Below, piece after piece: positions 1,144-17,336 of a DNA stretch of 64,000 nt. Source of the stretch: Halorubrum sp. DM2 (GTDB lineage Archaea > Halobacteriota > Halobacteria > Halobacteriales > Haloferacaceae). Below the pieces are notes generated by a model. That model was not told where the DNA came from and searched no databases. It was given only the letters and a program-made list of their open reading frames with translations. Numbering within the stretch: position 1 is the first letter of the stretch; the number at the start of each line of letters is the position of its first letter. The stretch lies in assembly GCF_901686465.1 (NCBI RefSeq), contig NZ_LR594487.1:1671650-1735649 (forward strand). Direction: 5' to 3'. The position numbers were made by a program, and so were the translations under genes.

Positions 1144-2286
1144 GTGAAACACCGATCACACTCTCGTAACGGCGATCGCACACTGACTTCTCCCGTGGGA
1201 TCAGGGAGACCTGCCACGGCACTCACTGCGATCACTACCACGGACTTTCAGGAGTGGCGACGGGCGTCGAACGCCCGTGAGAACGTTGAGGAAGGCCATG
1301 CGTACTACAACGACCCGAGTCCGGTGCCTCCGCCCGAGAAGCATACACCGAGCAGTCTGTTGCAGTGCCACCGAAAGCTCGTTTATCGGAAGGAGAACGC
1401 GCCGGCAGAGACCGAGATGGCCCAGGGCATTCTGTGGGTCGGCACGCGTTTCGAGGAGGATGTCGTACTACCGTACCTGCGCGACGCCGTCGACGATGAC
1501 GGCCTGCTTGTCACGAACTCCCTGTACGTCGACTTCGAAATCGAGACGGACGCCGGCGCACTCGTGGTTAAGGGGTCAACTGACCCTGTCGTCGTTGACG
1601 ACAACGGCGTGCCAATTCTCCCGACTGAAGTGAAGACGAAGGGTTCGTTGGAGTACCTCGACGAACCGAACGAGCACCACAAGGCACAGCTACACGCCTA
1701 CATGGTCGGCCTCTCGCAGAAGTACGACGTCGACGTGAAACGCGGATGTCTCATCTACGGGGGTCGCGACTCGTTCGATCTCAAGGTGTTCGATGTCGAG
1801 TTCGACACGGAATTCTGGCAAGAGACGGTCGTCAGCTGGGCGACCGAACACACAGAGTACCGCCTTGACGGCGAGCTCCCGCCGGCAACCCCCCGATTCG
1901 GATGGGAATGTGATTTCTGCTCGTACCGTGAACGGTGCGGGAAGAGCAACAGACCGGTATCGGACCGGGGGTCCCGTGGATTCCTTCCCCTCATGGAATA
2001 CCCCCGCTCACAGGTTGTTGAGCACCTAAAAGCGGAGCCGGACGCGATGCTCACTCCGACCCTCGCAGAAAGGTATCCAGACCTCGCTGCTGAACACGGG
2101 GTCTCCCAGTGGCGCTGTACGGCCTGTAGTAAGCAGTTTGATCATGACGAGGTAGATTGGGGTGGTGACACCGACACCCCTCCTCTATGCGCCTGCTGTG
2201 TCCGTGAAGACACCCCCGCCCCGCTGACTGGACCCTGGCCACCAGCTTACTCCGATGAGATTGCTGAAGGGGAGCGTTCCGAATGA
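1144..2286 (+). CDS. Cas4-like PD-(D/E)XK exonuclease with C-terminal zinc-finger extension
   Basis: The 380-residue protein has the hallmarks of the Cas4/RecB-like nuclease family. C75 (SLLQCHRKL) and C256, C259, C265 (ECDFCSYRERC) would hold the iron-sulfur cluster. The nuclease core is D147, E162-V-K164 and a QLHAY motif at 182-186. Cas4 enzymes are usually about 200 residues; here an extra tail carries C325, C328, C349 and C351/C352, probably a zinc finger. The GTG start at 1144 lies about 25 bp after a TTATATTG box. The end overlaps the next gene by ATGA, so the two are probably cotranslated. There is no CRISPR array or other cas gene in the window, so this is a stand-alone mobile-element nuclease. 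Confidence 0.85.
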   Translation: MKHRSHSRNGDRTLTSPVGSGRPATALTAITTTDFQEWRRASNARENVEEGHAYYNDPSPVPPPEKHTPSSLLQCHRKLVYRKENAPAETEMAQGILWVGTRFEEDVVLPYLRDAVDDDGLLVTNSLYVDFEIETDAGALVVKGSTDPVVVDDNGVPILPTEVKTKGSLEYLDEPNEHHKAQLHAYMVGLSQKYDVDVKRGCLIYGGRDSFDLKVFDVEFDTEFWQETVVSWATEHTEYRLDGELPPATPRFGWECDFCSYRERCGKSNRPVSDRGSRGFLPLMEYPRSQVVEHLKAEPDAMLTPTLAERYPDLAAEHGVSQWRCTACSKQFDHDEVDWGGDTDTPPLCACCVREDTPAPLTGPWPPAYSDEIAEGERSE

Positions 2287-3221
2287 TGATCGACGACCAT
2301 GCGGTCCCGCGGACAATGTCGCCGAGTGGGGGGTCAACAAACGAAGACGATCCAATCGAATACGCCGCAATCTACGCTCGAACCTCGTCCTCAAGCCAGC
2401 GATTCGGTTATTCAATCGGTGAACAGGTCGATCGTTGTTCCAAGCAGTGCGAACAGATGGGGTGGAACGTTACGTTCGTGTTCACCGACGAGGCAGAATC
2501 AGGTCGGAACACGGATCGGCCTAAGTTCCAAGAGATGCTGGATCGTGCTCGCGCTGGCTGTTTCGACGTCGTCGTCTTTTGGAAACTTGACCGGTTCTGT
2601 CGGTCGCTTGTCGACCTCGTAAAGACTGAGGAACGATTGAACGAGTGGGACGTGAGTCTCCAGAGTGTCACCGAATACATCGATACTACATCGCCGGTTG
2701 GTCGGTTCAACTTCAGAAACCTCGCATCGGCAGCAGAGCTCGAGAGCGATCTGACCAGCCAGCGTGTTCGAATGGGGATGCACGGGCTTGCGAAGGAGCA
2801 CAAGTGGCCAAATGACAAGCCTCCTCTGGGGTACGAAAAGACAAGCGAGGGGAAGCTCCGCGTGTTAGCAGACGAAGCGTCGGTCGTTAAGACGATATTC
2901 CGCCTCTATCTCCGCGAGAAATCAATGCCCCGCGTCGCGAGTCTACTCAACGAGAGTGGGCTTCGAACGAAAGCTGGTGAGCTGTGGTGTCGTCAATCTG
3001 TTCGAAAGGTCCTCACCAACGAGATCTACACCGGCAGCTACCAAGTTGCTGACTACCACGCACAAGTTGAAGACTATCGTATTCTCGATGATACACTCTT
3101 CGCAGCCGTCGTTGAGACACGTTTCCGGTATCAGCATCAGAAAGGACGGATGGAGCGCGTTCGGAAGCAGAGAAAAGCAGAGAGAATCCTATCCAACTAC
3201 CGTGAATGGAGGGATCTCTAG
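2283..3221 (+). CDS. serine recombinase, resolvase plus recombinase domains
   Basis: This 312-residue serine recombinase has the catalytic block YARTSSSSQ at 31-39, with S35 the likely nucleophile. The conserved arginines of the resolvase fold follow in FWKLDRFCRSL near residue 100. A Recombinase domain starts around PPLGYEKTSEG (about 180), and a basic helical tail may be coiled coil. It overlaps the Cas4-like gene by four bases and is followed with no gap by a TFB-type gene, so the three genes form one transcription unit. It is shorter than large phage integrases, which reach 450-600 residues. The substrate site is not evident. Confidence 0.88.
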   Translation: MMIDDHAVPRTMSPSGGSTNEDDPIEYAAIYARTSSSSQRFGYSIGEQVDRCSKQCEQMGWNVTFVFTDEAESGRNTDRPKFQEMLDRARAGCFDVVVFWKLDRFCRSLVDLVKTEERLNEWDVSLQSVTEYIDTTSPVGRFNFRNLASAAELESDLTSQRVRMGMHGLAKEHKWPNDKPPLGYEKTSEGKLRVLADEASVVKTIFRLYLREKSMPRVASLLNESGLRTKAGELWCRQSVRKVLTNEIYTGSYQVADYHAQVEDYRILDDTLFAAVVETRFRYQHQKGRMERVRKQRKAERILSNYREWRDL

Positions 3222-3986
3222 ATGTCATCAGAGGTTCCAGCGTGTCCGAGTTGTGGCGCGGTCGATGTGGATGACCGCTTCGATTTCACCGACGGGTTCT
3301 GTGGAGCGTGTGGATTCGTTCTCGACAAGGACAATATTGAGCAATCAAAGCCAGCTGCGGATGATTCGGATTCACAGACGAATCTCGAGATCGATGACTG
3401 GATCGAATCAGTACACCCACGTGACTCGTCTGAATCTGTTCTCGTTGAGCTGCTCGCCACCTTAGACCGGTCTAGAGCAGACCTGTTTCTCACCAAATCT
3501 GAGCTAGATCACTCGACAAAACTCTTGGTCAAAACTTGGGAGAAGACTCTCTTTCATGGTCGGAAAAGCGAGCACGTGATTGGTGCCGTACTGATCATCG
3601 TGCTTCGACGAGCCGAGGCCCCACGACCAGTTGGCGTGATCGCAGAGTCTCTCGGGTGCGAGAGGACGGCACTACAACGGACGATGAAGAAGCTCAAGCA
3701 GGAGCTCGGTATGGCGTTGTTGCCGCCGGTTCCAGAAGATTATCTGCCGTTCCTCGCGACGAAGTTAGCGCTTAAGGAATCGACAGTCAAAGCTGCGAGC
3801 AGGATCCTCAGCCGTTTCGACTCAGGCTCAGGTGACCCAGCCTGTACAGCCGCTGCGGCGCTTTACTTGGCTGCTAAGCCCCAGGGCGTATCGATCACCT
3901 ACGATTCCGCAGCTCGAGCCGCTGGATCGACAAAAGAGACTGTCTGGAGACGCTCACAATCCCTTACCGACCATCGTAATCCGTGA
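3222..3986 (+). CDS. TFIIB-like transcription factor (TFB family)
   Basis: The 254-residue protein opens with a zinc ribbon, C8-P-S-C11 and C27-G-A-C30, and continues with two cyclin-like repeats (about 90-170 and 175-250). This is the domain order of archaeal TFB, which places RNA polymerase on TATA-bound promoters. It is shorter than the usual haloarchaeal TFB of about 320 residues, and the B-reader region after the ribbon looks divergent and acidic. The ATG directly follows the stop of the recombinase gene. Its last 23 bases overlap the end of the opposite-strand recombinase. A TFB paralogue inside a mobile cassette could redirect transcription of the element itself; that role is inferred. 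Confidence 0.82.
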   Translation: MSSEVPACPSCGAVDVDDRFDFTDGFCGACGFVLDKDNIEQSKPAADDSDSQTNLEIDDWIESVHPRDSSESVLVELLATLDRSRADLFLTKSELDHSTKLLVKTWEKTLFHGRKSEHVIGAVLIIVLRRAEAPRPVGVIAESLGCERTALQRTMKKLKQELGMALLPPVPEDYLPFLATKLALKESTVKAASRILSRFDSGSGDPACTAAAALYLAAKPQGVSITYDSAARAAGSTKETVWRRSQSLTDHRNP

Positions 3987-5310
3987 TCGCGGATTGTGGG
4001 TCGCCCTCCTCATCGTCGTCACCATCGTCATCCTTGCTGTCTGTGTCGTCACCGTCCTCGACGTCGAATCCGAGGTTTGGGTGGCTGAATATTCGCTTCA
4101 ACCGGTCTGGACACAAATCACATCCAAATGACAGGCCGCAGTTCAGGCACTCATACGCGTAGTCGAACTGCATGCCGAGTTGTCGCCGAGTACTTGAGCG
4201 AAAGTTCTCGGTTGAGGTACAGAACGGACACCGCACTGGGACGGTCTGGTGGAGCGATTTAAGCTCCTGTTCAGTCATTAGTGGTCCTTGGTATTCGCAC
4301 TCTTGGCATCGGTACTTCGCTATCGGAATTCCCCAAACCTCCTTGGACCCGTGGCGTTCGAGGTCTCCGTCGCACTTCCGGCAGCGGAATGGTTTGAACG
4401 ACTCGAACTGCTCCATGACGAACTCAAGTCCGTACTGCTCCACGGCATCTGCGACGAATTCCGGAACTTCAGGCGTTGTGGGATGGTCTTCTTGGCCGGA
4501 AAGGATCGACTGTACCTCCTGGAAGAGTTCCGTATCCACCTGACGCAACTCCGGCATTTCGGTGACCACTTCTCCCTTGTAAGTCAGCCGCCCTAGGCAT
4601 AGCGGGCTCTGTAGTACGGTCTTGACACGTGAGTAGCTGATCGGGCCCAAACCATGCTCTTCGAACTTGTCGTTGAGCTGCCTCATCGTTTCCTTTCGAT
4701 TCTCGGTCTTTGCGTAGATCTCGAAGAAATCCTCGACAAACGGTGCGTAATCCTCATCTAAGAGCAGTTCATCGTCTTCGTTGGTTCGGTACCCGACCGG
4801 TGGATTGCCTCCGTACGGCCATTGACCATCTTTCAACTTCTGATGGCATCCATCGCGAGCACCTTGGCGGATCCGATTCAGATGTCGACGTGCGAATACG
4901 GCCTCTCGTGCGAGGATTTCGAGGTCGAAGTGTTCATCCCAGTCGAAGTAACCGTATGAGTCCGCATATAGCGTGATGCCCGCTTCACGGAGGTCATTTA
5001 GATAGCTCAGTGTCTCCCACGGGTTTGCTCGGCTCAAGCGGTCAACCTCGTAGATCATGAGAACATCGTAATCACCTTTCCGTCCTCGTTCAAGAGCGTC
5101 ATTTAGCTGGCTGCGTTCAATTTTGGCGGCAGACTCCTCGGCCTCCAGTATGGCGGTCGTCTCCAGATTAGCACCCTCTGCTGCCGTCTCAAGGTACTCG
5201 CGTTGGGACTTTTTGCTGGAGTTGTTTCCTTGAGATGTCGTACTCACTCGGGTGAGAATGAGTGCACGAGAACCATCGATCTCGTCTTTTCTCAAGAGCC
5301 CGAGCATCAT
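3964..5310 (-). CDS. serine recombinase with C-terminal zinc ribbons
   Basis: I chose the start at 5310, which gives 448 residues beginning MMLGLLRKDEIDGS. It places the nucleophile motif ILTRVST (S23) at the usual distance from the N-terminus and has a purine-rich GGATGGAG about 10 bases upstream. The frame is open to an ATG at 5532, which would add 74 residues with one hydrophobic stretch (AGIALFLIPFIYLIYAES). The resolvase domain is followed by a Recombinase domain (NPPVGYRTNEDD). Two zinc-ribbon pairs follow (CRKC/CQEC and CPFC/CLNC), then a very acidic tail. It converges on and overlaps the TFB-like gene. Confidence 0.85.
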   Translation of the reverse strand: MMLGLLRKDEIDGSRALILTRVSTTSQGNNSSKKSQREYLETAAEGANLETTAILEAEESAAKIERSQLNDALERGRKGDYDVLMIYEVDRLSRANPWETLSYLNDLREAGITLYADSYGYFDWDEHFDLEILAREAVFARRHLNRIRQGARDGCHQKLKDGQWPYGGNPPVGYRTNEDDELLLDEDYAPFVEDFFEIYAKTENRKETMRQLNDKFEEHGLGPISYSRVKTVLQSPLCLGRLTYKGEVVTEMPELRQVDTELFQEVQSILSGQEDHPTTPEVPEFVADAVEQYGLEFVMEQFESFKPFRCRKCDGDLERHGSKEVWGIPIAKYRCQECEYQGPLMTEQELKSLHQTVPVRCPFCTSTENFRSSTRRQLGMQFDYAYECLNCGLSFGCDLCPDRLKRIFSHPNLGFDVEDGDDTDSKDDDGDDDEEGDPQSAITDYDGR

Positions 5311-5565
5311 CGGAAGGCCCACTCCATCCTTAAGTAGGGTGCAGATTGAGGTGGTACAGCCTCCCGGTACGGTCAGACCACTTTCTGCGTAGATCAGATA
5401 TATAAACGGGATGAGAAACAGAGCTATACCTGCTTTTCGTATCCCCTTTTTATAGTATACATATGTAGTATATATACTAGAACTGGCAGTCGTAGACTGT
5501 GCGCTCGTCGTTTGGTCGTGGCTGTCGCTCATAATTTGAGATTGGCTCAGTAGAGAACTGCCTGG

Positions 5566-6687
5566 TCAGGTGCCGGCCTGACTGAATGCTCCGTGATTCG
5601 CGCCGACTTCCTCAAGAATCCGGCGGCGGAGGTCTCGTTTTTCTTCGGGGGTTCGTTCGTCGTAGTGCTTTTCGAGGATCGCCCTTGTCACGTCACAGCG
5701 CTCACTCAACGCCTCGGCGGGAATCCCATCTCGGAGGCACTCCGTGAGGTAGGTGTGCCGGATGTCGTGAGGCGAATGCGAGCCTGGACACTTTGAGTAT
5801 TTGTCAGGCGATGCTGCCGGGCCACAGCCCTCGGAATCGTGTCCATCCGGACAGTCTTGACCGAGGAAGCACGGACGGCTCCATTTGTACACGTATTTTC
5901 GCATCGTGCTTTTGCCCAGTCGTCCGTACGATGTTGAGAGAAGCGGGGAACGACCGTTCTCAGTCGTACACTCCTTTCTATTGTACGTAAGGTACGTGTC
6001 CAGAACAGTACAGAGCGACTCCGGGATGTTGACCTTCATTTCGCCTTTCACACCGTTTTTCAGGCTGGTCTCAGGTGGGTCGTGACGGAACTCTAGGAAC
6101 GGATGCTCTGCGTCGAGGTGAACGTCATCACAGTCGAGAGAGTGAATGCAGCCGAGTCGACGTCCAGTTTCGGCGAGAAGCACCCACACGACGTGCTCCC
6201 GGCTCGCATACGCTCGCTTGTGGATCTGGTCGAGGATCAGCCGCAAGCGCTCCGCGTCGATTTCGACGTCGCGAACACCCTCTCCATCAGTCAGCTTCGG
6301 GATCGAGATCTTGTCTGGGACATCGCAGTTGACAGCGTCGATCGTCGCGGCGTACCGAATGAAATCGCGAACGACGTACCGAACGTCGCGCATTGTGTTT
6401 GTACTCAGTTGCGTGTCGTACGAGTCTTCCCTACGCCAGGTGAAGTAGTCGTCTAGATCGCGGTTTCGTACGTCGTTTAGATCTTGAATGCCGTTCTGTT
6501 CGAGGTGGAGTTGAAAACGCAGCAGTTCGTTTTCGTATTCTTCGATAGTTGTCGGGCGAAGACTTCCAGAGCGGGTTTTCAGATACCGCTGGATGCCTTC
6601 GTCCACCATCATGGGATCCAGTGTGACTCGCCGCTCTCCCAAGATGTCTTCTAGCAATTCGTCTAGGTCTTTGTCGTTAGTTTCCAT
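5566..6687 (-). CDS. tyrosine recombinase/integrase
   Basis: The 373-residue protein has a SAM-like N-terminal core-binding domain (about 28-115) and a catalytic domain with R177 (ETGRRLG), H307-D-I-R310 and Y342 (EKHYDERT), the R-HxxR-Y set of tyrosine recombinases. A longer frame starts at 6780, but a TATA-like GGTATAAAAA lies inside it at about 6763-6773. I therefore place the start at the ATG at 6687. A cysteine-rich insert (CFLGQDCPDG, EGCGP) lies between the conserved boxes, as in the second integrase of this island at 22059-23069. Three degenerate repeats lie just upstream and could be arm-type binding sites or promoters. Confidence 0.88.
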   Translation of the reverse strand: METNDKDLDELLEDILGERRVTLDPMMVDEGIQRYLKTRSGSLRPTTIEEYENELLRFQLHLEQNGIQDLNDVRNRDLDDYFTWRREDSYDTQLSTNTMRDVRYVVRDFIRYAATIDAVNCDVPDKISIPKLTDGEGVRDVEIDAERLRLILDQIHKRAYASREHVVWVLLAETGRRLGCIHSLDCDDVHLDAEHPFLEFRHDPPETSLKNGVKGEMKVNIPESLCTVLDTYLTYNRKECTTENGRSPLLSTSYGRLGKSTMRKYVYKWSRPCFLGQDCPDGHDSEGCGPAASPDKYSKCPGSHSPHDIRHTYLTECLRDGIPAEALSERCDVTRAILEKHYDERTPEEKRDLRRRILEEVGANHGAFSQAGT

Positions 6688-7337
6688 TTTTGCTCTATTA
6701 CCGTGTTCTTTCACCGTCTTCGATGGTGTTCTGTACAAGAGACGCTTCTCTGGGTTCTTTCTATTTTTTATACCTCCCACCTCAATCGAGGTTTACAAAC
6801 TCTCCTTCTGGGGCTTTCCAGAATTTCTGTGTCTTCTTCTCTTACTCAATCTCCTCCACCCCAACCGGGATCTAAAAACACTCCACGGTTGGGCCTATGA
6901 CCATCAACTTAGCATTTTATTGTTTGTTTGGCACATTGCTTATTTCATGTATGATCTTACGCTATTTCCAAGTCTAGCCATCAACCCAATCGGGTTTTAA
7001 AAACTATCACTCTACGAGAATTTTTTAGATTACTATTTCGAGTAATACAAACCCACTAGCGCTCTAGAGTTTTTATGTATATTGTGGTGGCTACGGTTAA
7101 TTAAGGCTAAATTTGGGTAGACCAGATGTGGTAGCATTTAGCATGAATTCGCAGTTTGTATTCCAGATATTGCCATCTTTTATATCCATAATATACTCTA
7201 AATTATTCAAAACTAATATGAGCAAAAGGCTGCTTCTCGCGTACGCTTATTGATTTCCATCAGGTACGGTCAGCTAGTATACTCGTTAATTGTCGGCACC
7301 TTTGAAACTCTTCAGTTTGAAATTCACAACTGATTGC
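6688..7337. other. AT-rich intergenic region upstream of the integrase
   Basis: I see no credible gene in these 650 bases. The overlapping plus-strand frames (6593-7000 and others) encode low-complexity Phe/Leu-rich strings and have no motifs. The left third holds the probable integrase promoter and three degenerate 23-bp repeats. The right part is strongly AT-rich, without clear palindromes. It separates the recombinase block from the Argonaute operon, whose helicase gene ends at 7338. Confidence 0.5.
6783..7010. repeat. three degenerate 23-bp direct repeats
   Basis: Copies start at 6783, 6862 and 6987, all in one orientation. The shared core reads CAAYCGGG, then a T-rich step, then AAAAACWCTCC. 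Copies 1 and 3 match at 18 of 23 positions, copies 2 and 3 at 17 of 23. Spacing is 79 and 125 bp. They lie immediately upstream of the integrase start, where recombinase arm sites or excisionase sites are common. Read on the minus strand, each contains a TTTTTA-like stretch, so they could instead be promoter repeats. Confidence 0.5.
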
Positions 7338-9359
7338 TCACAGTTCTGTCGTTGGATTCGCCAGATCGATTATTTCTGGAACGTGAATCAGATAGACTTT
7401 AGATCCCGTCCTGAGCATGTAGTTCGCTCGAGCATCGCGATCGTAATATGGTGATAAAACACACTCACCAGACCATTGATAGAGATCTGCGCTACCCTTC
7501 CCGGCATCTTCCCGAACCTCGATCACGTCGGAAAAACTCTCGTCTGAGACTACCTTCCGGACTGTCTCATCACTAACAGTCTCATTCTCTAGCCGCTCGT
7601 TTATTCTATCCTGTAGCGTCCTCTGAGTTTGCCAGCTGATTCCCCCGTCGTACTTCGCCCGGAGTAATTCTTCTAGAACGTGAATCCGTTTTCCATTGTT
7701 ATCAAAATCGTGAATAGTTATCTGTGAAGTCGAGATCCACTCCGGGATCGCTTGTGTGTTCACATAGACTGATGTGGGTCGTCCTCGTGCCTGCTTGGTC
7801 CGTCCAAAACGAAGGATCGCTTGGAACACTTGGCCATGTGTGAGGTGTCGATAAATCTCTTCGCCGAACCCAGTAAACCCGTCCAACGAACCGGAATTGC
7901 CATCTCCAGTGCGTTCTGGCTCGGTTACCTCACCACACAACGCGGCCCACTGCTTGACAACATCGTCCCCCGGAAACGGCGATCCGGACACGAATCCAAC
8001 GGATTCGTTCTTGAACAGGTTTGAGCTCAGTACCTTCGCATAGTTCCGGGCGAAATAGCCCTCTAGGTCCGTCTCTGTCTCTTGATCATCTACCTCGATT
8101 ACGCACTTTTTCAACCAAGACTCAGAGGCGTAGTTGTCTAGGGCTCTTTTCCGTGATATGATCGGAAAACGCTGCTCCTCCAAAGAACGAACCGTGAACA
8201 TTCGCTGCCGATCTCTAGAAGATGTCTTGCCTGAGGAATAGTGGTTCATTCCCTCTGTCATCTGTGTGATCTTGAACCCTAGTCCCTCGGAGAGATATCG
8301 ATCGAGTTCTTTGCGCTCAATCACCCGTGATAGCGTGAAATCGCACCCAAGAACTGCTTCCCAGAGTCGCTGGACCGGGAGTGCGTCAAGGGCAATAACT
8401 TGCTCTGCGTGACTTAGATCGGGTGGAGTAAGTACGAGTATCTCGCCGGAGTTACGATCCCTCACGCAGCGCACGTTGGGATCTACACCACAGGCTTCCC
8501 AAAGGTCTGGATCGTGAGCCAGTTCGATACCCGCCCCAACTTTCTCCATAATCAACAGAGCACAGGTGAGTAGTGCGGCGTATTGGTGAGAGTTGTTGTA
8601 CGGGTGGGGTGTGATCGTGACCTGCTCTATTGAGGTGCTCTTTTTTGCGCCATTCTGCTTGAACCACTCAATAGTCGTTTTCCAAGAGTCACCCTTCTCA
8701 ACTCGTGCTTCGATGAGATCCGTGAGATCGGACAGTGGGATATCGTCAACGGCCTCGAGAAAGGCTCCAATAATATTGTGTGGGATGTTTCGTCTTTCTC
8801 CCGACTTCGTTCTCTGTGGAAATCGGGTCAGAAAGGGGTTGATGTTGAACTCGTCGAACACCACCGTTCGCCCCTGTAGATACCGAGGAACGTGTGCATG
8901 CTGATGATTTCCGATGAGTAGGTCGATCTGATCAGCGTTCTCTTTGAGCCTATCTCGCTTTGTGAGATACGGACAGGTGGACCACGGACTTTGACACGGC
9001 GTGTTGACCGTACTCCAAGGCTTGTAATGAATCTCTTCTCCGCTCAGGCCCTTCTGATAGAGCTTCCGTGCCTTTTCTGCTTCTCCGTCGTTCTCGTCAG
9101 CAAATGTAGGGCAGTCTCGGTACGGACTGGGAATTACCATCGCGTCGATCCCCCCGGCTTTCTCCGCTTCTTCGATCGCCTGAGCGTAAAGGTCTCGACG
9201 GGCGGTTAGGTAGAGTATCTTTTGTCCGTCTTCTGCGGCGAGCCGGACTGAATTGTATGTTTTTCCGCTTGCCGGAGGTGCTTCAACTAGGACGGGGTTC
9301 TCTCGATCACAAGCATCAACAATCGTCTCAGTAGTCCTACTTCGGACGGCGTCCTGCAT
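7338..9359 (-). CDS. superfamily 2 helicase-like ATPase, third gene of the Argonaute operon
   Basis: The 673-residue protein has Walker A APPASGKT at 27-34 and a Walker B-type VVFDEF at about 166-171. A motif III-like SGSPF and a motif VI-like QAILRFGRTKQARGR occur in the second half. Three cysteines (C83, C122, C129) lie between Walker A and B, the region that carries the iron-sulfur cluster in XPD/DinG helicases, but I see only three of the four usually needed. The gene follows the PIWI gene on the same strand after 119 bp. It could supply unwound target DNA to the Argonaute complex; that is inference. An independent plasmid- or virus-type helicase is the alternative. Confidence 0.72.
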   Translation of the reverse strand: MQDAVRSRTTETIVDACDRENPVLVEAPPASGKTYNSVRLAAEDGQKILYLTARRDLYAQAIEEAEKAGGIDAMVIPSPYRDCPTFADENDGEAEKARKLYQKGLSGEEIHYKPWSTVNTPCQSPWSTCPYLTKRDRLKENADQIDLLIGNHQHAHVPRYLQGRTVVFDEFNINPFLTRFPQRTKSGERRNIPHNIIGAFLEAVDDIPLSDLTDLIEARVEKGDSWKTTIEWFKQNGAKKSTSIEQVTITPHPYNNSHQYAALLTCALLIMEKVGAGIELAHDPDLWEACGVDPNVRCVRDRNSGEILVLTPPDLSHAEQVIALDALPVQRLWEAVLGCDFTLSRVIERKELDRYLSEGLGFKITQMTEGMNHYSSGKTSSRDRQRMFTVRSLEEQRFPIISRKRALDNYASESWLKKCVIEVDDQETETDLEGYFARNYAKVLSSNLFKNESVGFVSGSPFPGDDVVKQWAALCGEVTEPERTGDGNSGSLDGFTGFGEEIYRHLTHGQVFQAILRFGRTKQARGRPTSVYVNTQAIPEWISTSQITIHDFDNNGKRIHVLEELLRAKYDGGISWQTQRTLQDRINERLENETVSDETVRKVVSDESFSDVIEVREDAGKGSADLYQWSGECVLSPYYDRDARANYMLRTGSKVYLIHVPEIIDLANPTTEL

Positions 9360-9478
9360 ATCTCGTCTTACCTAGTCGGTCACCAGAAACGAGATATAAC
9401 TCCTCGGTGGTGGCTCTCAGATCCGATAACATGAGTGTTGATTTCATTTTGTTTAAACAGAACTCGTACCGAGCGAGT

Positions 9479-10906
9479 TCACATGTAATAGTAATAGTGG
9501 TAAGGGAACGCCCCGTCCGGAAGGTTCTGCGCCATCGGTTCTGCAAGAATGTCGCTAACGGCGTCAGCAATTCCGACCGTCACAGGGAGTTTCTTACAGA
9601 AGTCAGAGCTGTTCCAATCGAGTTTCGAGAATGAGAGTATCTCTTCACATATTTTCCGGTATGAGGTAGCGTTCACCTCTTCATGAGGACGGACGACGAT
9701 TGGGTTTGGTGTCCCAGGCTCAGCATATGCGGAAATCTCTGGGATGAATCCCTTCGTATAGAGATAATATTCACTCTTTCCCGGTGGCAGCGCAACTGTA
9801 CCTCTCAGAGGCGGGTATTGCGTATTGCTGAAGAGGCGAATTGGGTGATGCTCTCGGATGGTAATGAAGTCTCGCTGTCTCACGTCTGCGGAGCCAGATT
9901 TGAATCCTTCTGTCTCCTGCTTCCAGAAGTTGGAGGACTTGTGAATCACCAACCGGTCAGGACGATCCTGCCTTCGGTCGCCGTACCGCTGTAAGATGGT
10001 TTGGATTAGTAGCTCGGCATCTCCAGCTGACAAATGTGTCCGTCCCGTATCGGCATCGCTGGCGATGTCGGTGACCGGGTCACCACGGATGACGAAATTC
10101 TCTCCGGTCTCCATGAACACCTGCGCGATCGACGCTCTGGTGTCCGGATCCGTTCCGCGCTCATCGTAGAAGGATATGCCAGCGTAGCAGGTGTTCGATT
10201 TTAATTCAGTGAGCTTCCATGGTCGTCCTCTTCGAGCCTTGTAGAGTAGACCTACTGCGAGATTCCACGCTACCTCCCGGCGTGGTTGGACATCCTCTCC
10301 ACGGAGGGTCTTGGGGCCGATCAACTGAGTTGGGGTCTGATTCAGCATCCCCAAGAGCTTGATGCGGCTTCTGAAGTCGGTGTCGGCCGTCCGAATGGTA
10401 TCTGCTTTCTTGCCCCCTGTGAACAGCTCAGCGAGGTTTTCCGGGATGCTTACAATGATCACGTCCGGACTCGGGGTTGTCGAGCAGACACTCTCTATCT
10501 GGTACTTGATATAATCCAGTGCCATCTCAACACGCTCGGCATCATCGCGGACGTCGCTCAGTGAGTCGATGTCATCATATTCTATTTCGCCCCGCCACAT
10601 CGGACGCTGATCGAACGACATCTTGAGCTCAGAGTTAGGGCCAAGTCCTGGGAACGGCTGATTCCACCGCTGTCGGTCGTCTCCCTCGGGGAGGATCCCA
10701 TACCGCATGTCCTCAAGCAGGTCTCGCATCGCCGAGATAGACCAGCTATCACCAATCAGTCCGACTCGTACCACCTCATGATTAGAGCCGTCACGCGGTG
10801 GGCACGGCCCGTACTTTAGTAGTCCGCTCCGCGGATCCTTCGCCGTATTGTCACCGGCGAAGACGAGCTCCGGCTCCGAGAGGTAGTCCACTCTGAACCC
10901 AGACAT
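9479..10906 (-). CDS. short prokaryotic Argonaute (MID-PIWI, catalytically inactive)
   Basis: The 475-residue protein matches short pAgo proteins along the PIWI domain. The landmarks are NTCYAGISFY at 238-247, VIHKSSNFW at 320-328, YPPLRGTV at 364-371, and a C-terminal run ending HYYYYM. A MID-like segment lies at 177-201 (DFRSRIKLLGMLNQTPTQLI). The positions of the first catalytic Asp (IGxD) and of the second (HRDG) are Ser here, so slicing is not expected, as in other short pAgos. These act as guide-dependent sensors that activate a partner. The start codon overlaps the stop of the upstream APAZ gene by one base (TGATG), so the partner is next door. Confidence 0.85.
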   Translation of the reverse strand: MSGFRVDYLSEPELVFAGDNTAKDPRSGLLKYGPCPPRDGSNHEVVRVGLIGDSWSISAMRDLLEDMRYGILPEGDDRQRWNQPFPGLGPNSELKMSFDQRPMWRGEIEYDDIDSLSDVRDDAERVEMALDYIKYQIESVCSTTPSPDVIIVSIPENLAELFTGGKKADTIRTADTDFRSRIKLLGMLNQTPTQLIGPKTLRGEDVQPRREVAWNLAVGLLYKARRGRPWKLTELKSNTCYAGISFYDERGTDPDTRASIAQVFMETGENFVIRGDPVTDIASDADTGRTHLSAGDAELLIQTILQRYGDRRQDRPDRLVIHKSSNFWKQETEGFKSGSADVRQRDFITIREHHPIRLFSNTQYPPLRGTVALPPGKSEYYLYTKGFIPEISAYAEPGTPNPIVVRPHEEVNATSYRKICEEILSFSKLDWNSSDFCKKLPVTVGIADAVSDILAEPMAQNLPDGAFPYHYYYYM

Positions 10907-12360
10907 CAGTACGCGTCCACACCTCGTTGCATGAGAAGTTCTCGCTCGGTTCCGTCTTTCGGAGGCCGCACGCGAAGCTCTAACCCATCTTCGTGCTCGA
11001 ACTCTAGTCGTTGGGTGTCATCCTCTATATCTGTCTCCTCAAGCGGTGGTGATTCATCCATTCCAAGGTATGCGCGCCACTGTCGGAATTGTGCCTTCAG
11101 ATTATTTGGACGGTAATGGCCGCTACTTTGGAGTTTGTCATGGAGTTTGCTGGCGGTGTCGCCTTTTAGGATATCGGTCCCCCGACCGGACCGGGAGAAC
11201 ATCCATCCAGTGTCGATGAAGACGTAGAATTGCTCCTTATATTGCTTGACAACCGGTACCGCGTAGCGATGGGCGGTATATGCGCCCCAATCTATCGCAA
11301 CGTCCCATCCCTCGACCCTCGTCTTTGCCGGAGAATCGTCGTCTTCGCTAGATATCTCGCCTTCGTGTTTGAAGAGCAGGCGATTCTCGTACTGGTGGCG
11401 AACCATTCTACAACCTTCGTACCCGTCGACTGCGCGTCGTCGTATCTCGCGGTTGAACAATCGCTTCGCAACATTGGGAGCTGCATCTTCGCTCTCTAGC
11501 CAGCTGCCGAACGGTCGGCTCTGAACAGACTCTCCATCGATGAACGGACGGAGCGAGTCAGGTATCTCTTCCATTGGAATCAGGCTGTAGAACAGGCCTG
11601 ACTCGACCCAGATGGGTAGGTACCGAGGATTATCGACGTAGATGTCCTCAGGATGGTCTGCGAGGTTTTCACCGATGTAGATTGATTCTGGTAGCCCACT
11701 AATACGGAGGAAGTTAGCGACGAGAGTCTCAGTTTCTCGCGAGGGTGAGTTCTCTCGAGTGTAGAAGTCCCATTTAGAACGATTCACAGACCGCTCATCC
11801 TCTGCCATCTGTCCGAGACGGTTCCAGCTGGCGCGGTGGACGAAGACATCGGCAAGAAACCACTCGAAATCTTCTACTCCAAGGTTTTGGAGGGCTGCTT
11901 CCTCGGCGTCATTCAGCTTCTGCCTCTCTCTCAGGGTATCGAAGTAGTCTTTGATGTACTCCGGGCTGTTCGTTCTGGGATCGAATATTCGCTCCCACTT
12001 GTCAAAGGCTTGGAGATACGATGCGTAAATGTGGTATTCGAATCCTCCGCCCTGCTCACAATAGTCGATGAAGACGCGAGCTAGTTCAGTGAGGAAGTCG
12101 TCATCCAGTCGGGACAGTTTGGTTCCCTTGGCCTCCACCCGCACAAATTTCTTGATGTCGTCACCTACCTTCTCGCCGCTGAGATAGTAGAAACCCTCGT
12201 CGACAGTAACCGCAGCCAAGTCTTCGGTCGTACTGTGATGATTCGATCGTCGTTCGATGCTGTATCCACGAGCCCGGAGGTATTCTTCAATCGCCTGCTT
12301 ATACTTCTCACCCTTGTCCCCACTGGCCTCGCTCGTTCCTTCGTGATTGTATATCGGCAT
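10906..12360 (-). CDS. PD-(D/E)XK nuclease-APAZ protein, partner of the short Argonaute
   Basis: The 484-residue protein starts with a restriction-endonuclease-like fold: a helix around E25, D47, then VRVEAKGT with E76 and K78. The C-terminal half (about 230-450) has features of the APAZ domain, such as HRYAVPVVKQYKEQFYVFID and a late NNLKAQFRQWRAYLG. APAZ resembles the N-PAZ part of long Argonautes and binds short pAgos. In known SPARDA (DREN-APAZ) and Mrr-APAZ systems, guide and target binding by the pAgo unleashes the nuclease on cell DNA or RNA. This gene is first in the operon. The assignment rests on motif reading; the exact nuclease subtype is uncertain. Confidence 0.78.
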   Translation of the reverse strand: MPIYNHEGTSEASGDKGEKYKQAIEEYLRARGYSIERRSNHHSTTEDLAAVTVDEGFYYLSGEKVGDDIKKFVRVEAKGTKLSRLDDDFLTELARVFIDYCEQGGGFEYHIYASYLQAFDKWERIFDPRTNSPEYIKDYFDTLRERQKLNDAEEAALQNLGVEDFEWFLADVFVHRASWNRLGQMAEDERSVNRSKWDFYTRENSPSRETETLVANFLRISGLPESIYIGENLADHPEDIYVDNPRYLPIWVESGLFYSLIPMEEIPDSLRPFIDGESVQSRPFGSWLESEDAAPNVAKRLFNREIRRRAVDGYEGCRMVRHQYENRLLFKHEGEISSEDDDSPAKTRVEGWDVAIDWGAYTAHRYAVPVVKQYKEQFYVFIDTGWMFSRSGRGTDILKGDTASKLHDKLQSSGHYRPNNLKAQFRQWRAYLGMDESPPLEETDIEDDTQRLEFEHEDGLELRVRPPKDGTERELLMQRGVDAY

Positions 12361-12455
12361 TTAGTTATTAGATGTCCGTACTCTTTGATAGATAGTGTTT
12401 GTCATACACCCACAGCATAATAAAAGCCTGATTCTTATACTATGTTGACGAATCG

Positions 12456-13316
12456 ATGCAAGGAAAACTGAGTGTGGGTGAGGTGGTGTCACTTCTCTTC
12501 GACGAACACAGGTACGACAGTCCCCTCTCCCGAAAAGCGGTTCATAAGCTGCTCTATTTCGTTAAAGATGAATTAGACAGTGAGCAGGTTACGACAGACA
12601 TCCCGACCTTCTGGTATATGTATGGCACAATGACGGCGACGGTCAATACCGGCGTTCACACCGGAGGCGAGCCAAACGAAGATCCGGTAACTTGCGACGT
12701 CGCTGCTGCTGACATCGACAAACCAGAGGGGACGATTCGACGGGGACGTCAAGCGGCAAGCCGGGCCCTTGAACGGTACTACGACCTTGGGCTTGAGGGA
12801 CTCACCGACCAGATGTACGACGATGCGCCATACGAAATACAGCGACACTACCGGCGTCTGGATAAGCAGTTGGGTACTGCAGACTCGGCCCAGATGACGC
12901 TCTCCTTCGACCAGAATGCTGGACCGACGAGAGAGACGCTGTACGATTTCATTGAGGATTTCCCAACTGACTCCTTCCCCGACTACGAGGACGACCTTCA
13001 CATCTGGTACCGATTGATGAGCGCTGAATTAGATTCATCGGAGTATAACCCTAAAGAGGCTAAAAAGTATTCTAAGGTCTTCTGGCGGCTATTCTGCTTG
13101 GAGCTAGCGGTTCGTGAGAATGACGGTCTAACACGTATACAGATTGAGGGTGAATTAAACCTCGACAGCATTGATGAAGCTAAGAGACAACTTCGCTCTC
13201 AACTCCGTAGCTGGGAGCGTGACAAGGCGGAGGCGAACGCTCGAGACAACAGAACCTCGAGAAGAGCTGCAGATGCACTTATTTTACCTTTCATTGATTT
13301 CGAGGTGACTGGATAG
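12456..13316 (+). CDS. Panacea (SocA/DUF4065)-like protein, possible antitoxin
   Basis: The 286-residue protein has an N-terminal segment, KAVHKLLYFVKDEL followed by FWYMYGTM, that resembles the Panacea/DUF4065 domain (consensus QKLLYFA..., then KYGPV). That domain is known as a promiscuous antitoxin module. The rest is acidic and unrecognised. It is divergent from the Argonaute operon, with only 95 bp between starts, and is followed after 4 bp by a PIN-like gene. The pair therefore looks like antitoxin-toxin, or accessory genes of the Argonaute locus. The Panacea match is by eye and weak. Confidence 0.5.
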   Translation: MQGKLSVGEVVSLLFDEHRYDSPLSRKAVHKLLYFVKDELDSEQVTTDIPTFWYMYGTMTATVNTGVHTGGEPNEDPVTCDVAAADIDKPEGTIRRGRQAASRALERYYDLGLEGLTDQMYDDAPYEIQRHYRRLDKQLGTADSAQMTLSFDQNAGPTRETLYDFIEDFPTDSFPDYEDDLHIWYRLMSAELDSSEYNPKEAKKYSKVFWRLFCLELAVRENDGLTRIQIEGELNLDSIDEAKRQLRSQLRSWERDKAEANARDNRTSRRAADALILPFIDFEVTG

Positions 13317-13320
13317 GTCT

Positions 13321-14085
13321 ATGGTGCGCTATTTCCTTGACACCGGCCCACTCGTCGGGGTAACATTCCTTCACGACTTATGGCGGGACGAAGCCAAACG
13401 ACTCTTCGAGACAGACAACTCACTCTCGACAAGTCGGGCGGTGATTTACGAGTACTGTAACAGCACCTCGAAGAACTCACTCGAGTCGGAAGAGGTGAGC
13501 TGGGAGGCTGATGAGGGGAGATTCGGCGATAAGCTTTCGAAAATTCGGGCTGCGCAAACCAACTTAGGAATTAAACTTCGAAGTTACGCTGATGAGGAAC
13601 TTGATTTGGAAACGCTCGTTGACGAGTTTATCGCTGTCACTCGCATTGAAGAAAACGTTTATCCTCAGCGTCTGATCCGGGAGATTATTCGCCCCAATGT
13701 TCGGAGCTTTCTCCGAGACGAGATCGACGACCAGCAAGTGACCTGTAGAGTGGCGCGTGAGGCAATGGATGCGCTCTGCGACACCATCATTGCCGATGCA
13801 CTTGAGATGCGAGATTTACTTCAAAATCGGGTTATGTGGGGGCCGACGAATGAATGGGCTGAGGAGGATAGGAACCGACGTCTCTCGTTTGTTGATGGGA
13901 ATATTGACAGAGTGATTCTATGCGATGCAAATCACCAGCGCAACAGAAACATCATCGGAAAAATTGTGACCTCGGACAAGTCACACATGTACGGAAATCG
14001 CGACCGGATCAAGGCTGTGCTAGGGCTTCCGGTCGTATATGTCAAAGACGAATTTGCTGACCCCGACCTACCTACCGGCGACTGA
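13321..14085 (+). CDS. PIN-like domain protein, possible toxin
   Basis: The 254-residue protein begins MVRYFLDTGPLVGVTFLHD, the normal opening of a PIN nuclease with D7 as first acidic residue. An acidic YEYC follows near residue 43 and a late IVTSDKSHMYG near 220 gives another Asp. It is much longer than VapC toxins (about 130 residues), with a helical insertion between the conserved parts. It starts 4 bp after the Panacea-like gene. A ribonuclease toxin partner is the simplest reading; a nuclease effector of the nearby defence genes is also possible. Confidence 0.6.
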   Translation: MVRYFLDTGPLVGVTFLHDLWRDEAKRLFETDNSLSTSRAVIYEYCNSTSKNSLESEEVSWEADEGRFGDKLSKIRAAQTNLGIKLRSYADEELDLETLVDEFIAVTRIEENVYPQRLIREIIRPNVRSFLRDEIDDQQVTCRVAREAMDALCDTIIADALEMRDLLQNRVMWGPTNEWAEEDRNRRLSFVDGNIDRVILCDANHQRNRNIIGKIVTSDKSHMYGNRDRIKAVLGLPVVYVKDEFADPDLPTGD

Positions 14086-14322: not shown

Positions 14323-15423
14323 ATGGTTACTGTCACTGAATTCGCGGAATATAATTGTCTCACCGGCTCAGATGACCAATCAGTAGAAGAGATTGTACAC
14401 TTTGATAAGTCGGAATTAGAGGGAGTTGATGTCTCTGACAGTAAGAATGACTTGGACCAGAGTGACATCCTGTCACGGCTAACGGGAACTCTATCAAGGC
14501 TGAAGTCTAAGCAGTTCCATACGGCGGAAAACTCACGAGCCCGCATTCATACGCTCGAATCAGTCACTACCGATGGTGTGGAATCCGATGACGACACAGA
14601 AGAGACCAGCACACACCCACTGAAACAGGTATATGACAGTGATTCATTTGCGGATGCTGCCGAGTCACTGGCAACCCAATATTCTGAAACCAATTTCGCG
14701 TTAGATGCAGTACTGTTCTTTTTTCGTTTCGAGTCACAGAGCGTTGACGAGGACCGAATCGCTGTCATTCAGGAGATCCATCTCTCAGATGCCTACCGAC
14801 CGAGCGCAGATGAAATCCTTGACCCAGCGGAACAAGTAGTCCGGCAGCGCATGGAGAAAGGGTTGGTATATCCAGCACGTGCACTCCAGGAACCAAACGA
14901 CGAAGACACAGAGGAAGAAATCTACCTCAATAAGGATCGCACAGCCGTCTATCAACGGAGCCACGCGAATTATTGGAGTACGTTTGCTCAATTGGAAAAG
15001 GAATTAAAAGCAAATGAAATTCTATGGAAAGGCGATAGTGACGACGAAAGGGCAGACGATGCAGGTAGACTGGACGAGGTGAAACAAGCCCGAGACGACG
15101 TGTCCGAACTTCAGCCTGTGGACGAACTCCCTGACGTATACACTGACCTGTCTGATCTTGAAGTCACGATCACCCCGGACGGTGAGAAGTCTGTCTCCGG
15201 ATTCACAATTGAGCAACTCGTAGAAAGGGATGGAATCAATATAGTCTGTGACAGCGGTGGTCGGCACCATATTATTATCACCAAAGGCCGTCCTGAAATC
15301 CGCCATGTGAATGAAAGCGACACGCTTGAAACTGATAACGAAGATATCGACTTGTTCCCCGAGATCGACGCGTACGACTCGCCAGATGACGTTCCGGGGC
15401 TCGCAGACGAAAACAGCCAATAA
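14323..15423 (+). CDS. unrecognised acidic cytosolic protein, first gene of a two-gene unit
   Basis: I do not recognise this 366-residue protein. It is Asp/Glu-rich, with no membrane segment and no signal. The middle has a hydrophobic strand (ALDAVLFFFRF, about 126-136) followed by a basic-acidic helical region, and the C-terminal third has short strands. It overlaps the following membrane protein gene as TAATG, so the two products are probably made together. The arrangement is reminiscent of two-gene membrane defence systems such as Kiwa, whose KwaB is a DUF4868 protein. I cannot show homology. An inverted repeat, TGACATA/TATGTCA (14283-14317), lies just upstream. Confidence 0.65.
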   Translation: MVTVTEFAEYNCLTGSDDQSVEEIVHFDKSELEGVDVSDSKNDLDQSDILSRLTGTLSRLKSKQFHTAENSRARIHTLESVTTDGVESDDDTEETSTHPLKQVYDSDSFADAAESLATQYSETNFALDAVLFFFRFESQSVDEDRIAVIQEIHLSDAYRPSADEILDPAEQVVRQRMEKGLVYPARALQEPNDEDTEEEIYLNKDRTAVYQRSHANYWSTFAQLEKELKANEILWKGDSDDERADDAGRLDEVKQARDDVSELQPVDELPDVYTDLSDLEVTITPDGEKSVSGFTIEQLVERDGINIVCDSGGRHHIIITKGRPEIRHVNESDTLETDNEDIDLFPEIDAYDSPDDVPGLADENSQ

Positions 15424-17336
15424 TGGATTCTACAGCGGTTAGATTTCTCGAAGAAACCCCTTCATATCTCGACACAGAGACGGACGCAATCATACGAGTT
15501 GAGGCTGAATCCGAACTGACCCCCAGGGTAGAAGACTTTCTTGAAGACTTGGCCGTAACCTGTGCGGCATATCCATCTTGGTTCGACCCTGGCGGAACAA
15601 TCGAAGCAACTCAATCCAACATCGAACTTGAACTTGGAACTAATGGCATTAGAATCCGTTCGTCAAATGGACTCCCTGGCGATCCAGTACGGTATCAGGA
15701 TTTCTCAGGTGGTTCAGAAGATCAGGATCGCGTTTCGTCGCTCGTTGATGACTTTACCGACGTAATTGGTAGTGACGAATCTATCAACATCCACTACGAA
15801 TTAGCAAAACAAAATCTTAGTCGCTCGGTTGTGGACTCTCACGACATTGCTGCTTCAGTCCATGTCTGGACTGCCAAAGATGTCTTAGCTGATTGGTTAG
15901 AAGATACAAACCCGGAACACATCGAAGACCAGTATGTCGATCCACAACAACCGCTCTTACTGTTTATCGGGAGTGATGACATTGAGTTCGAACCTGATCC
16001 CTCCTGGATTGCCCTCGCACCTCTATCAGCGGTAGACAACGTTTGTGACGAGTACACCCAACCGACCAACCCAATTGTTGAAACAGTAAATTACACTAAT
16101 CAATGGACAGACGAGAAATTCGAGCAGTCTCAGCACTCATTATTATTTAATTCCGCACAGATCCGAGAACTATTCGACACCACATTTTTACACACAGCAT
16201 TCAGGACTCTATCAGACGAATCTCCCATCCAGCAAAACCCTCACAAATGGACGTACACTATCTCAAACCAAGATCCACCACTCACATCAGATGTTGATTA
16301 TTCCGAGTATGCGTTACAGTCAGAGAATCTAACAGAAATATACCATATTATTTCTGGATTTCACACAGTTCCAACAAAGAATCTACAAAGATACTGGTTA
16401 CAGGCTATCTCTCGGAGCTGTAACTCACATAAAAAAATCCCATACAATCGCGATCAAATTGAGAAATATTTCAAAATATTTGAAGATGGCGTACTACAAG
16501 ACACATTAGCTGAAGCAACTGAAACAGCTGACAAACTACACGAATTAGTTAGCACACTCCAAAAGGATCTGACTGATTCTACACAGTCAGTTACCAATCA
16601 GGTTAAAACGATTATTTATGGACTTGTTGCAGCTGTTATTACTAACACATTTCTGGTCATCCGGTGGGGAGATATCAGCCAGACCTTGCCGTTCTCTCTC
16701 TTTATTATCTCGATCGGCTTACTCGCCTATCTCCCAATCACGGCCGCACAACTAAGAGATACAGACAAAAATATCAGTCAAAGCATCTCGAACTTCCGAT
16801 CAACATATATGAGAATATACAACATCTCACAGGCAGGACTCAACGAGTACGAATTTGCAGATGGAGAGCAACTACTCACACACAAAAAAATCCGTGATAG
16901 CCTCCAAGGAGGGTTCTGTGGGTCACAGAGCCTACTGAAAGAACTCAAATGGGTTTGTTCATCAACAGATACTGACAGAGTCTCACTTCCAACAGACGCT
17001 GATCATATCGGTCAAAAAAACGCAGCTGTAACTAATACTCAAAATCGCATCACTTGGTCAATCAAATACCTTCACCGACTCTACGTAATCCTTGCACTCA
17101 GTTGGATAGTTATTGCTGGCTTCTCACTCACCGTATATACCCCATCAACTGCCCCTTATATCGGCACTACTTTATCTACTATACCAGCTCTTGTACTCCT
17201 TATTCGAGACTCAAGACTGAATTCAAGTACAGTCCCCTTCGCCCGTAACATCATTACAATTCTATTTACAATATTATTATTAATAGTTATATTTAATATT
17301 GTCATAGATTACGGACTGATGGTGCGTATATTGTGA
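15423..17336 (+). CDS. large protein with soluble N-terminal domain and about five C-terminal membrane segments
   Basis: The 637-residue protein has a soluble, acidic first 390 residues. Hydrophobic segments follow at about 394-413 (IIYGLVAAVITNTFLVI), 421-442, 552-572 (VILALSWIVIAGFSLTVY), 580-596 and 610-633. A helical loop of some 110 residues separates the second and third segments and contains a coiled-coil-like stretch. A likely coiled coil also precedes the first segment (ETADKLHELVSTLQKDL). I recognise no family. Codon use is AT-rich compared with its neighbours, suggesting recent transfer. With the preceding gene it forms a self-contained operon inside a defence-rich island. Confidence 0.68.
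   Translation: MDSTAVRFLEETPSYLDTETDAIIRVEAESELTPRVEDFLEDLAVTCAAYPSWFDPGGTIEATQSNIELELGTNGIRIRSSNGLPGDPVRYQDFSGGSEDQDRVSSLVDDFTDVIGSDESINIHYELAKQNLSRSVVDSHDIAASVHVWTAKDVLADWLEDTNPEHIEDQYVDPQQPLLLFIGSDDIEFEPDPSWIALAPLSAVDNVCDEYTQPTNPIVETVNYTNQWTDEKFEQSQHSLLFNSAQIRELFDTTFLHTAFRTLSDESPIQQNPHKWTYTISNQDPPLTSDVDYSEYALQSENLTEIYHIISGFHTVPTKNLQRYWLQAISRSCNSHKKIPYNRDQIEKYFKIFEDGVLQDTLAEATETADKLHELVSTLQKDLTDSTQSVTNQVKTIIYGLVAAVITNTFLVIRWGDISQTLPFSLFIISIGLLAYLPITAAQLRDTDKNISQSISNFRSTYMRIYNISQAGLNEYEFADGEQLLTHKKIRDSLQGGFCGSQSLLKELKWVCSSTDTDRVSLPTDADHIGQKNAAVTNTQNRITWSIKYLHRLYVILALSWIVIAGFSLTVYTPSTAPYIGTTLSTIPALVLLIRDSRLNSSTVPFARNIITILFTILLLIVIFNIVIDYGLMVRIL

What the first reader, a model, noticed from the sequence alone, without database searches (positions are those of the whole stretch)
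7338..12360. Candidate short-Argonaute defence operon with a helicase as third gene
Three same-strand genes encode a PD-(D/E)XK-APAZ protein, a catalytically dead MID-PIWI protein (landmarks CYAGISFY and VIHKSSNFW) and an SF2-like helicase. The first two overlap by TGATG. APAZ-effector plus short pAgo is the layout of known SPARTA, SPARSA and SPARDA systems, in which guide-directed recognition of invader nucleic acid triggers an abortive nuclease. A helicase in the same operon is, to my knowledge, not a standard part, and haloarchaeal examples are scarce. The helicase might feed single-stranded target to the complex or replace an effector step.
Basis: partly seen in the sequence, partly recalled or inferred. 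Interest (0 to 1): 0.87.

Follow-up and report, generated by a model that had tools for sequence, protein, structure and literature searches.

The report
Argonaute defence cassette carrying toxin–antitoxin pair

Summary
The core call is right. 9479-10906(-) is a short, catalytically dead Argonaute (PADLOC pAgo_I, E 8e-133; solved SPARDA-type relatives, E down to 7e-55) and 10906-12360(-) is its PD-(D/E)XK-APAZ partner (PADLOC Aga_REase_Archaea, E 9e-169). The helicase claim fails: no other pAgo locus examined carries it, and in 391 haloarchaeal genomes APAZ and helicase occur independently (odds ratio 0.92, p = 1). Its nearest relatives mostly sit beside a tyrosine recombinase.

The real extra parts lie on the other side, on the opposite strand: 12456-13316(+), a divergent Panacea-like antitoxin ("PAN"), and 13321-14085(+), a VapC-like PIN nuclease with conserved acidic residues ("PIN"). 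All 33 haloarchaeal genomes with the APAZ protein have PAN. Of 358 without, two do (Fisher 6e-46), and those two carry a different, split pAgo with a membrane protein in the same operon. All 32 four-gene loci have the divergent layout. Relatives outside Halobacteria lack the pair.

I read it as a SPARDA-like abortive system carrying its own toxin-antitoxin-like guard. The anatomy is shown; the guard function is inferred. New variant of a known kind; I found no earlier report in the open-access papers searched.

The parts
10906..12360 (-). APAZ effector: N-terminal PD-(D/E)XK nuclease domain plus C-terminal APAZ domain (484 aa)
   Evidence: PADLOC Aga_REase_Archaea E 8.6e-169; family profile matches DUF4365-APAZ, HNH-APAZ and DREN-APAZ chains over the APAZ part, E 2e-10 to 4e-8; E11, D47, E76, K78 invariant
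9479..10906 (-). AGO: short prokaryotic Argonaute, MID-PIWI, catalytically inactive (475 aa)
   Evidence: PADLOC pAgo_I E 8.3e-133; PDB short pAgos 9om4_B E 7e-55 and 9jsb_A E 4e-51; tetrad positions substituted
12456..13316 (+). PAN: divergent Panacea-like (SocA/DUF4065-like) antitoxin-type protein with C-terminal helical extension (286 aa)
   Evidence: HH comparison of all PAN with PF13274-family proteins P 89.9, E 1.7e-6, unrelated controls P 1.2 or less; model residues 3-124 resemble DarG chain 7yk3_D, Z 8.6; present in 33 of 33 APAZ genomes
13321..14085 (+). PIN: VapC-like PIN-domain nuclease with a helical insertion; conserved acidic positions D7, E44, D196, D202, D219 (254 aa)
   Evidence: AF2 model pLDDT 90.5; VapC and other PIN structures fill the top of the list, Z 9-12; Pfam PIN hits 10 of 19 members, best E 1.1e-4; conserved acids
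12361..12455 (.). 95-bp divergent intergenic region between PAN and APAZ (91-167 bp in all 32 four-gene loci), where both promoters must lie
7338..9359 (-). Helicase-like ORF: NOT part of the system; an adjacent mobile-element gene
   Evidence: absent from other pAgo loci; independence p = 1; TYR recombinase neighbour in five of six nearest homologs

Best explanation
The unit is a four-gene divergent cassette, PIN<-PAN<- ->APAZ-nuclease->AGO. SHOWN: gene content, layout, domain identities, intact predicted nuclease and PIN active-site residues, dead PIWI, and strict co-occurrence in haloarchaea. INFERRED FROM KNOWN RELATIVES: APAZ-nuclease and AGO form a heterodimer that uses an RNA guide to recognise invader DNA and then cuts nucleic acid indiscriminately (SPARDA, TmuRE-Ago), stopping infection at the cost of the cell. 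INFERRED HERE: PAN holds the PIN ribonuclease inactive as a toxin-antitoxin-like pair dedicated to pAgo cassettes. When the sensor fires, or an invader shuts off expression or removes the cassette, the labile PAN is not replaced and PIN is released, cutting tRNA, rRNA or mRNA. This enforces growth arrest and also makes the cassette hard to lose. The helicase is not a component.
For: APAZ and AGO identity; active-site residues. PAN in 33/33 APAZ genomes against 2/358 others, Fisher 6e-46. All 32 four-gene loci divergent, PAN-APAZ gap 91-167 bp; 12 AGO clusters at 80% identity. No other gene family occurs in more than 9 of 40 loci. The four genes diverge in step, Mantel r 0.88-0.95, 0/2000 permutations. 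The same PAN-PIN clade also heads operons with a split pAgo and a TM-containing protein (L161, L162, L182), so its role is tied to pAgo and not to one effector. PAN is Panacea-like and DarG-like in fold; PIN is VapC-like; order is antitoxin then toxin, overlapping or nearly so. Free-standing PAN-PIN pairs without pAgo exist (L163-L166, L172, L173) and fall outside the pAgo-linked clade, so the pair can act alone. In decayed cassettes APAZ or AGO is broken while PAN-PIN stays intact (L123, L124, DL31 = L177 + L181), and APAZ is interrupted by an IS630 element in L209.
Against: No experiment. The Panacea assignment is profile-level: no Pfam hit by single sequences and the fold match is modest. 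Nuclease-APAZ/AGO pairs outside Halobacteria (L205, L206, L207) lack PAN-PIN, so the pair is not needed for the core mechanism. Losses of PAN-PIN together with the APAZ N-terminus (L108, L112, L177-L179) are explained by position alone.
Confidence: 0.55

Rival explanations
1. PIN is the nuclease that makes or trims the RNA guides for the haloarchaeal pAgo, and PAN is its regulator or adaptor.
For: The pair is tied to pAgos of two types with different partners, which fits a step upstream of the effector; PIN folds include RNA processors, and protein-only RNase P structures are among the matches, Z 8-9.
Against: Nuclease-APAZ/AGO relatives in other archaea have no such pair; free-standing PAN-PIN pairs exist without any pAgo; the best fold matches are VapC toxins; PAN is antitoxin-like.
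Confidence: 0.13
2. PAN-PIN is a plain addiction module that hitch-hikes on pAgo cassettes and has no part in immunity.
For: TA-like identity; many cassettes are on plasmids; PAN-PIN survives when APAZ or AGO is broken.
Against: Exclusive pairing with pAgo within its clade, 33/33 retention over 12 divergent clusters, fixed divergent layout with a short shared promoter region, and other neighbours in at most 9 of 40 loci are more than chance hitch-hiking predicts.
Confidence: 0.22
3. One reading: a three-gene operon in which the helicase supplies single-stranded target or replaces an effector step.
For: Same strand, 119 bp downstream of AGO. Helicase-containing orthogroups have been reported in some pAgo operons (PMC6299218).
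Against: Absent in the 96%-identical locus and in all other pAgo loci scanned; genome-level independence p = 1; its homologs travel with a tyrosine recombinase, and L126 repeats the window's Cas4-like/TFB-like/serine recombinase/tyrosine recombinase/helicase gene set.
Confidence: 0.03

Closest known systems
SPARDA (DREN/DUF4365-APAZ + short pAgo; NbaSPARDA, TmuRE-Ago)
   Same: Inactive MID-PIWI short pAgo translationally coupled to a PD-(D/E)XK-APAZ protein; AGO matches the SPARDA pAgo 9jsb_A at E 4e-51 and the APAZ profile matches DREN-APAZ 9jsb_D at E 4e-8.
   Different: The N-terminal nuclease shows no sequence match to DUF4365/DREN; haloarchaeal loci carry the divergent PAN-PIN pair, which is not described as part of SPARDA in the papers read and which gave no PADLOC hit.
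PADLOC Aga_REase_Archaea + pAgo class I
   Same: Same APAZ-effector family, E 8.6e-169, nearly full length.
   Different: The family model describes the effector protein only; PAN and PIN match no PADLOC model.
SiAgo-Aga1-Aga2 and AfAgo split pAgo systems
   Same: The second architecture (L161, L162, L182) has a ~331-aa N-L1-L2-like protein, a 436-aa PIWI protein and a ~435-aa TM-containing protein in one operon, as described for AfAgo/SiAgo (PMC10954474).
   Different: Headed by the haloarchaeal PAN-PIN pair, which PMC10954474 does not report in the passages read.
Panacea-containing (PanAT) toxin-antitoxin systems and VapBC
   Same: Panacea-like protein beside a VapC-like PIN nuclease in antitoxin-toxin order. 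Panacea antitoxins are known for swapping toxins (PMC8832971), and PanA is among the antitoxins of tested nuclease toxins (PMC10440598).
   Different: Panacea similarity is seen only by profile comparison; PAN is ~290 aa with a long C-terminal extension; PIN has a large helical insertion; the pair is locked to pAgo.
CreTA, the toxin-antitoxin RNA pair that guards haloarchaeal CRISPR-Cas (cited in PMC11442185, reference 51)
   Same: A TA module dedicated to a defence system in haloarchaea (recalled, title seen).
   Different: CreTA is RNA-based and regulated by Cascade; here both parts are proteins and the defence is pAgo.

Membership tests
SPARDA-type short pAgo system | Short pAgo with MID and PIWI only | tested here: met
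   475 aa; full-length match to PADLOC pAgo_I and to solved short pAgos
SPARDA-type short pAgo system | PIWI catalytic tetrad lost | tested here: met
   CYAGISFY with invariant S245 and VIHKSSNFW in place of the Asp motifs across 18 homologs; motif reading from general knowledge of pAgos
SPARDA-type short pAgo system | APAZ domain in the adjacent coupled gene | tested here: met
   APAZ profile matches 9qbl_A, 9om4_A, 9qbq_A, 9jsb_D over positions 195-459; TGATG overlap
SPARDA-type short pAgo system | N-terminal nuclease of the DREN/DUF4365 family | tested here: inconclusive
   PD-(D/E)XK residues invariant but no Pfam match and PDB matches cover only the APAZ part; not modelled
SPARDA-type short pAgo system | RNA-guided, DNA-activated collateral nuclease activity | not testable with these tools
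   Needs purified complex
VapC-like PIN nuclease | PIN fold | tested here: met
   Model pLDDT 90.5; Z 10-12 to VapC structures; Pfam PIN in 10 of 19 members
VapC-like PIN nuclease | Conserved acidic active site | tested here: met
   D196 and D219 invariant, E44 and D202 at 90% or more, D7 replaced by E only in two near-identical members; assignment to the catalytic set is by position, not by superposition
Panacea (PF13274) antitoxin | Sequence or profile similarity to Panacea | tested here: inconclusive
   HH P 89.9, E 1.7e-6 for all PAN, P 43.4 for the pAgo-linked set alone, controls 1.2 or less; no Pfam hit by single sequences
Toxin-antitoxin system | Toxin inhibits growth and antitoxin neutralises it | not testable with these tools
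   Needs expression experiments
pAgo operon with helicase as third gene | Conserved linkage of helicase to pAgo | tested here: not met
   Present in the window only; odds ratio 0.92, p = 1

The most novel reading that the evidence does not exclude
PAN-PIN is a dedicated guide-supply module of archaeal pAgos: the PIN ribonuclease produces the RNA guides, and PAN gates it, serving both a nuclease-APAZ short pAgo and a membrane-effector split pAgo.
Probability: 0.12. Interest if true: 0.88.

Novelty: new variant of a known kind. Interest (0 to 1): 0.6.

Why it matters
Short Argonaute systems have been treated as two-gene units. In haloarchaea the unit is four genes, and the extra pair looks like a protein toxin-antitoxin module that has stayed with pAgos of two different types. 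Either it is a built-in backup suicide switch and addiction device for RNA-guided immunity, or it supplies guides, whose origin in short pAgos is, as far as I know, unsettled. Both can be tested directly by deleting PAN-PIN in a genetically tractable haloarchaeon. It also corrects the record on the helicase.

Tried and rejected
Helicase as partner: rejected on linkage and occurrence. Search of viral contigs with PAN found none and of phage records with PAN found none: no virus-borne antitoxin mimic seen. Foldseek alone gave no match at E 0.001 or better for PIN or PAN; the PIN fold became clear only with VIA-align, and for PAN the helical C-terminal part matched many unrelated helical bundles, which I disregard. 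Sequence search of the PDB with PAN and PIN profiles gave only chance hits. Losses of PAN-PIN in loci with truncated APAZ were considered as evidence of functional dependence and set aside, because one deletion removes both by position. Literature searches for a haloarchaeal Argonaute with PIN or Panacea partners found none, but subscription papers, preprints and supplements were not available. The 2018 pAgo survey's supplementary orthogroup table could list these genes without a name.

Full report
Observation. AGO is a short pAgo: PADLOC pAgo_I E 8e-133, and solved short pAgos 9om4_B (E 7e-55) and 9jsb_A (E 4e-51). The upstream protein is PADLOC Aga_REase_Archaea, E 9e-169. A profile of its family matches the APAZ part of DUF4365-APAZ, HNH-APAZ and DREN-APAZ chains. 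Across 18 homologs the nuclease residues E11, D47, E76 and K78 are invariant, and the PIWI motif carries an invariant Ser where active Agos have Asp. So the core is a SPARDA-like pair with a live effector and a dead Argonaute.

The helicase. In Halogeometricum pallidum the APAZ and AGO proteins are 92% and 96% identical to the window's, yet no helicase follows. None of the other haloarchaeal pAgo loci, fetched as stretches of up to 20 kb, carries it. Across 391 haloarchaeal genomes it occurs in 125, and 10 of the 33 APAZ genomes have one, just what independence predicts (odds ratio 0.92, p = 1). In five of the six loci with the nearest helicase relatives a tyrosine recombinase lies next to it. 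One of these (L126) carries the same Cas4-like, TFB-like, serine recombinase, tyrosine recombinase and helicase genes as the window. The helicase is therefore a mobile-element gene abutting the cassette.

The conserved partners. Immediately upstream of APAZ, on the opposite strand, lie PAN (286 aa) and PIN (254 aa). With profiles of the four families, all 32 loci holding all four genes show one layout: PIN and PAN on one strand, APAZ and AGO on the other, with 91-167 bp between PAN and APAZ. The loci form 12 AGO clusters at 80% identity; the minimum pairwise identity is 36% for AGO and 22% for PIN. Among 40 loci the next most common neighbour family occurs in 9, so the cassette boundary is sharp. 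All 33 genomes with the APAZ protein have PAN; of the 358 without it, two do (Fisher 6e-46). In the plasmid collection PAN and PIN hit the same 19 records, all haloarchaeal and annotated, where annotated at all, as hypothetical proteins. Distances between loci agree among all four genes, Mantel r 0.88-0.95.

A second architecture. The two PAN genomes without APAZ (L161, L162), and the Haloplanus rallus plasmid (L182), have PAN, PIN, a ~331-aa protein weakly similar to the N-terminal part of long pAgos, a 436-aa PIWI protein and a ~435-aa protein with C-terminal TM segments, in one direction. This is the layout of split pAgos such as AfAgo and SiAgo (PMC10954474). In PAN and PIN trees these pairs group with the APAZ-linked pairs, apart from free-standing pairs (99/98 for PAN, 92/91 for PIN). 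The order within the linked clade is unresolved. The pair is therefore tied to pAgos, not to one effector.

What PAN and PIN are. The PIN model (pLDDT 90.5) aligns with VapC toxins and other PIN proteins at Z 9-12, and ten of 19 members hit Pfam PIN. Acidic positions D196 and D219 are invariant, E44 and D202 nearly so. PAN has no Pfam hit by single sequences, but a profile of all PAN matches a profile of PF13274 Panacea proteins at P 89.9, E 1.7e-6, while unrelated profiles give P 1.2 or less; the pAgo-linked set alone gives P 43.4. Its N-terminal domain resembles the DarG antitoxin chain 7yk3_D at Z 8.6. Free-standing PAN-PIN pairs without a pAgo nearby exist in other haloarchaea. Together this is a toxin-antitoxin-like pair.

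Decay and distribution. In several loci APAZ or AGO is broken by insertions while PAN-PIN is intact: L123, L124, and strain DL31, where APAZ is split at residue 135/136 and the halves lie some 285 kb apart, one beside PAN-PIN and the other beside AGO. In L209 an IS630 transposase lies within the APAZ gene. No intact APAZ-AGO pair without PAN-PIN was found in haloarchaea. Loci without PAN-PIN have lost the adjacent APAZ N-terminus too (L108, L112, L177-L179), which position alone explains. Outside Halobacteria, nuclease-APAZ/AGO pairs (L205, L206, L207) have no PAN-PIN. The pair is thus a haloarchaeal addition, not a core requirement.

Mechanism. By analogy with SPARDA and TmuRE-Ago, the APAZ-nuclease/AGO heterodimer would sense invader DNA with an RNA guide and then destroy nucleic acids (PMC12205087, PMC10810196). 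I propose that PAN keeps PIN silent and that disruption of expression during infection, or loss of the cassette, frees PIN to cut RNA, enforcing arrest and retention. The guide-making rival fits the link to two pAgo types but not the absence of the pair elsewhere or the free-standing pairs. Plain addiction remains possible.

Limits. No function was tested. The DREN identity of the nuclease domain is open. Novelty rests on the PADLOC, Pfam and open-access literature searches listed here.

Noticed in passing
window 14323-17336 (+): Two-gene pair (366 aa and 637 aa with hydrophobic C-terminal segments) of unknown family also lies beside the Argonaute cassette in L102 (83% and 69% identity, next to PIN) and L113: a possible further module.
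   Followed up: partly
window 1144-9359: Cas4-like nuclease, serine recombinases, TFB-like protein, tyrosine recombinase and helicase form a gene set repeated in L126; the recombinase-helicase pair recurs in L127-L130: a haloarchaeal mobile-element module.
   Followed up: partly
window 1-31000: Low-GC (0.45-0.59) island in a host of about 0.70 GC with an Mrr-type endonuclease (23283-24320), D12-class adenine methyltransferase (24336-25205), Orc1/Cdc6 (25297-26565), DUF4268 protein (26847-27887), integrase (22059-23069) and a transposase (29761-30396).
   Followed up: no
L161, L162, L182: Haloarchaeal split pAgo operons with a TM-containing protein, SiAgo/AfAgo-like, headed by PAN-PIN.
   Followed up: partly
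L163-L166, L172, L173: Free-standing Panacea-like/PIN-like gene pairs in haloarchaea, some near other apparent defence genes.
   Followed up: partly
L177, L178, L180: Downstream of AGO lie a TATA-box-binding-like protein, a large helicase-related protein and a DUF1156 or TaqI-like specificity protein; the helicase-related family recurs in 9 of 40 loci and differs from the window's helicase.
   Followed up: no
L205 (IMGVR_UViG_3300037843_001625): A contig of the viral collection carries an intact nuclease-APAZ/AGO pair of this type (AGO 42% identical) without PAN-PIN.
   Followed up: partly
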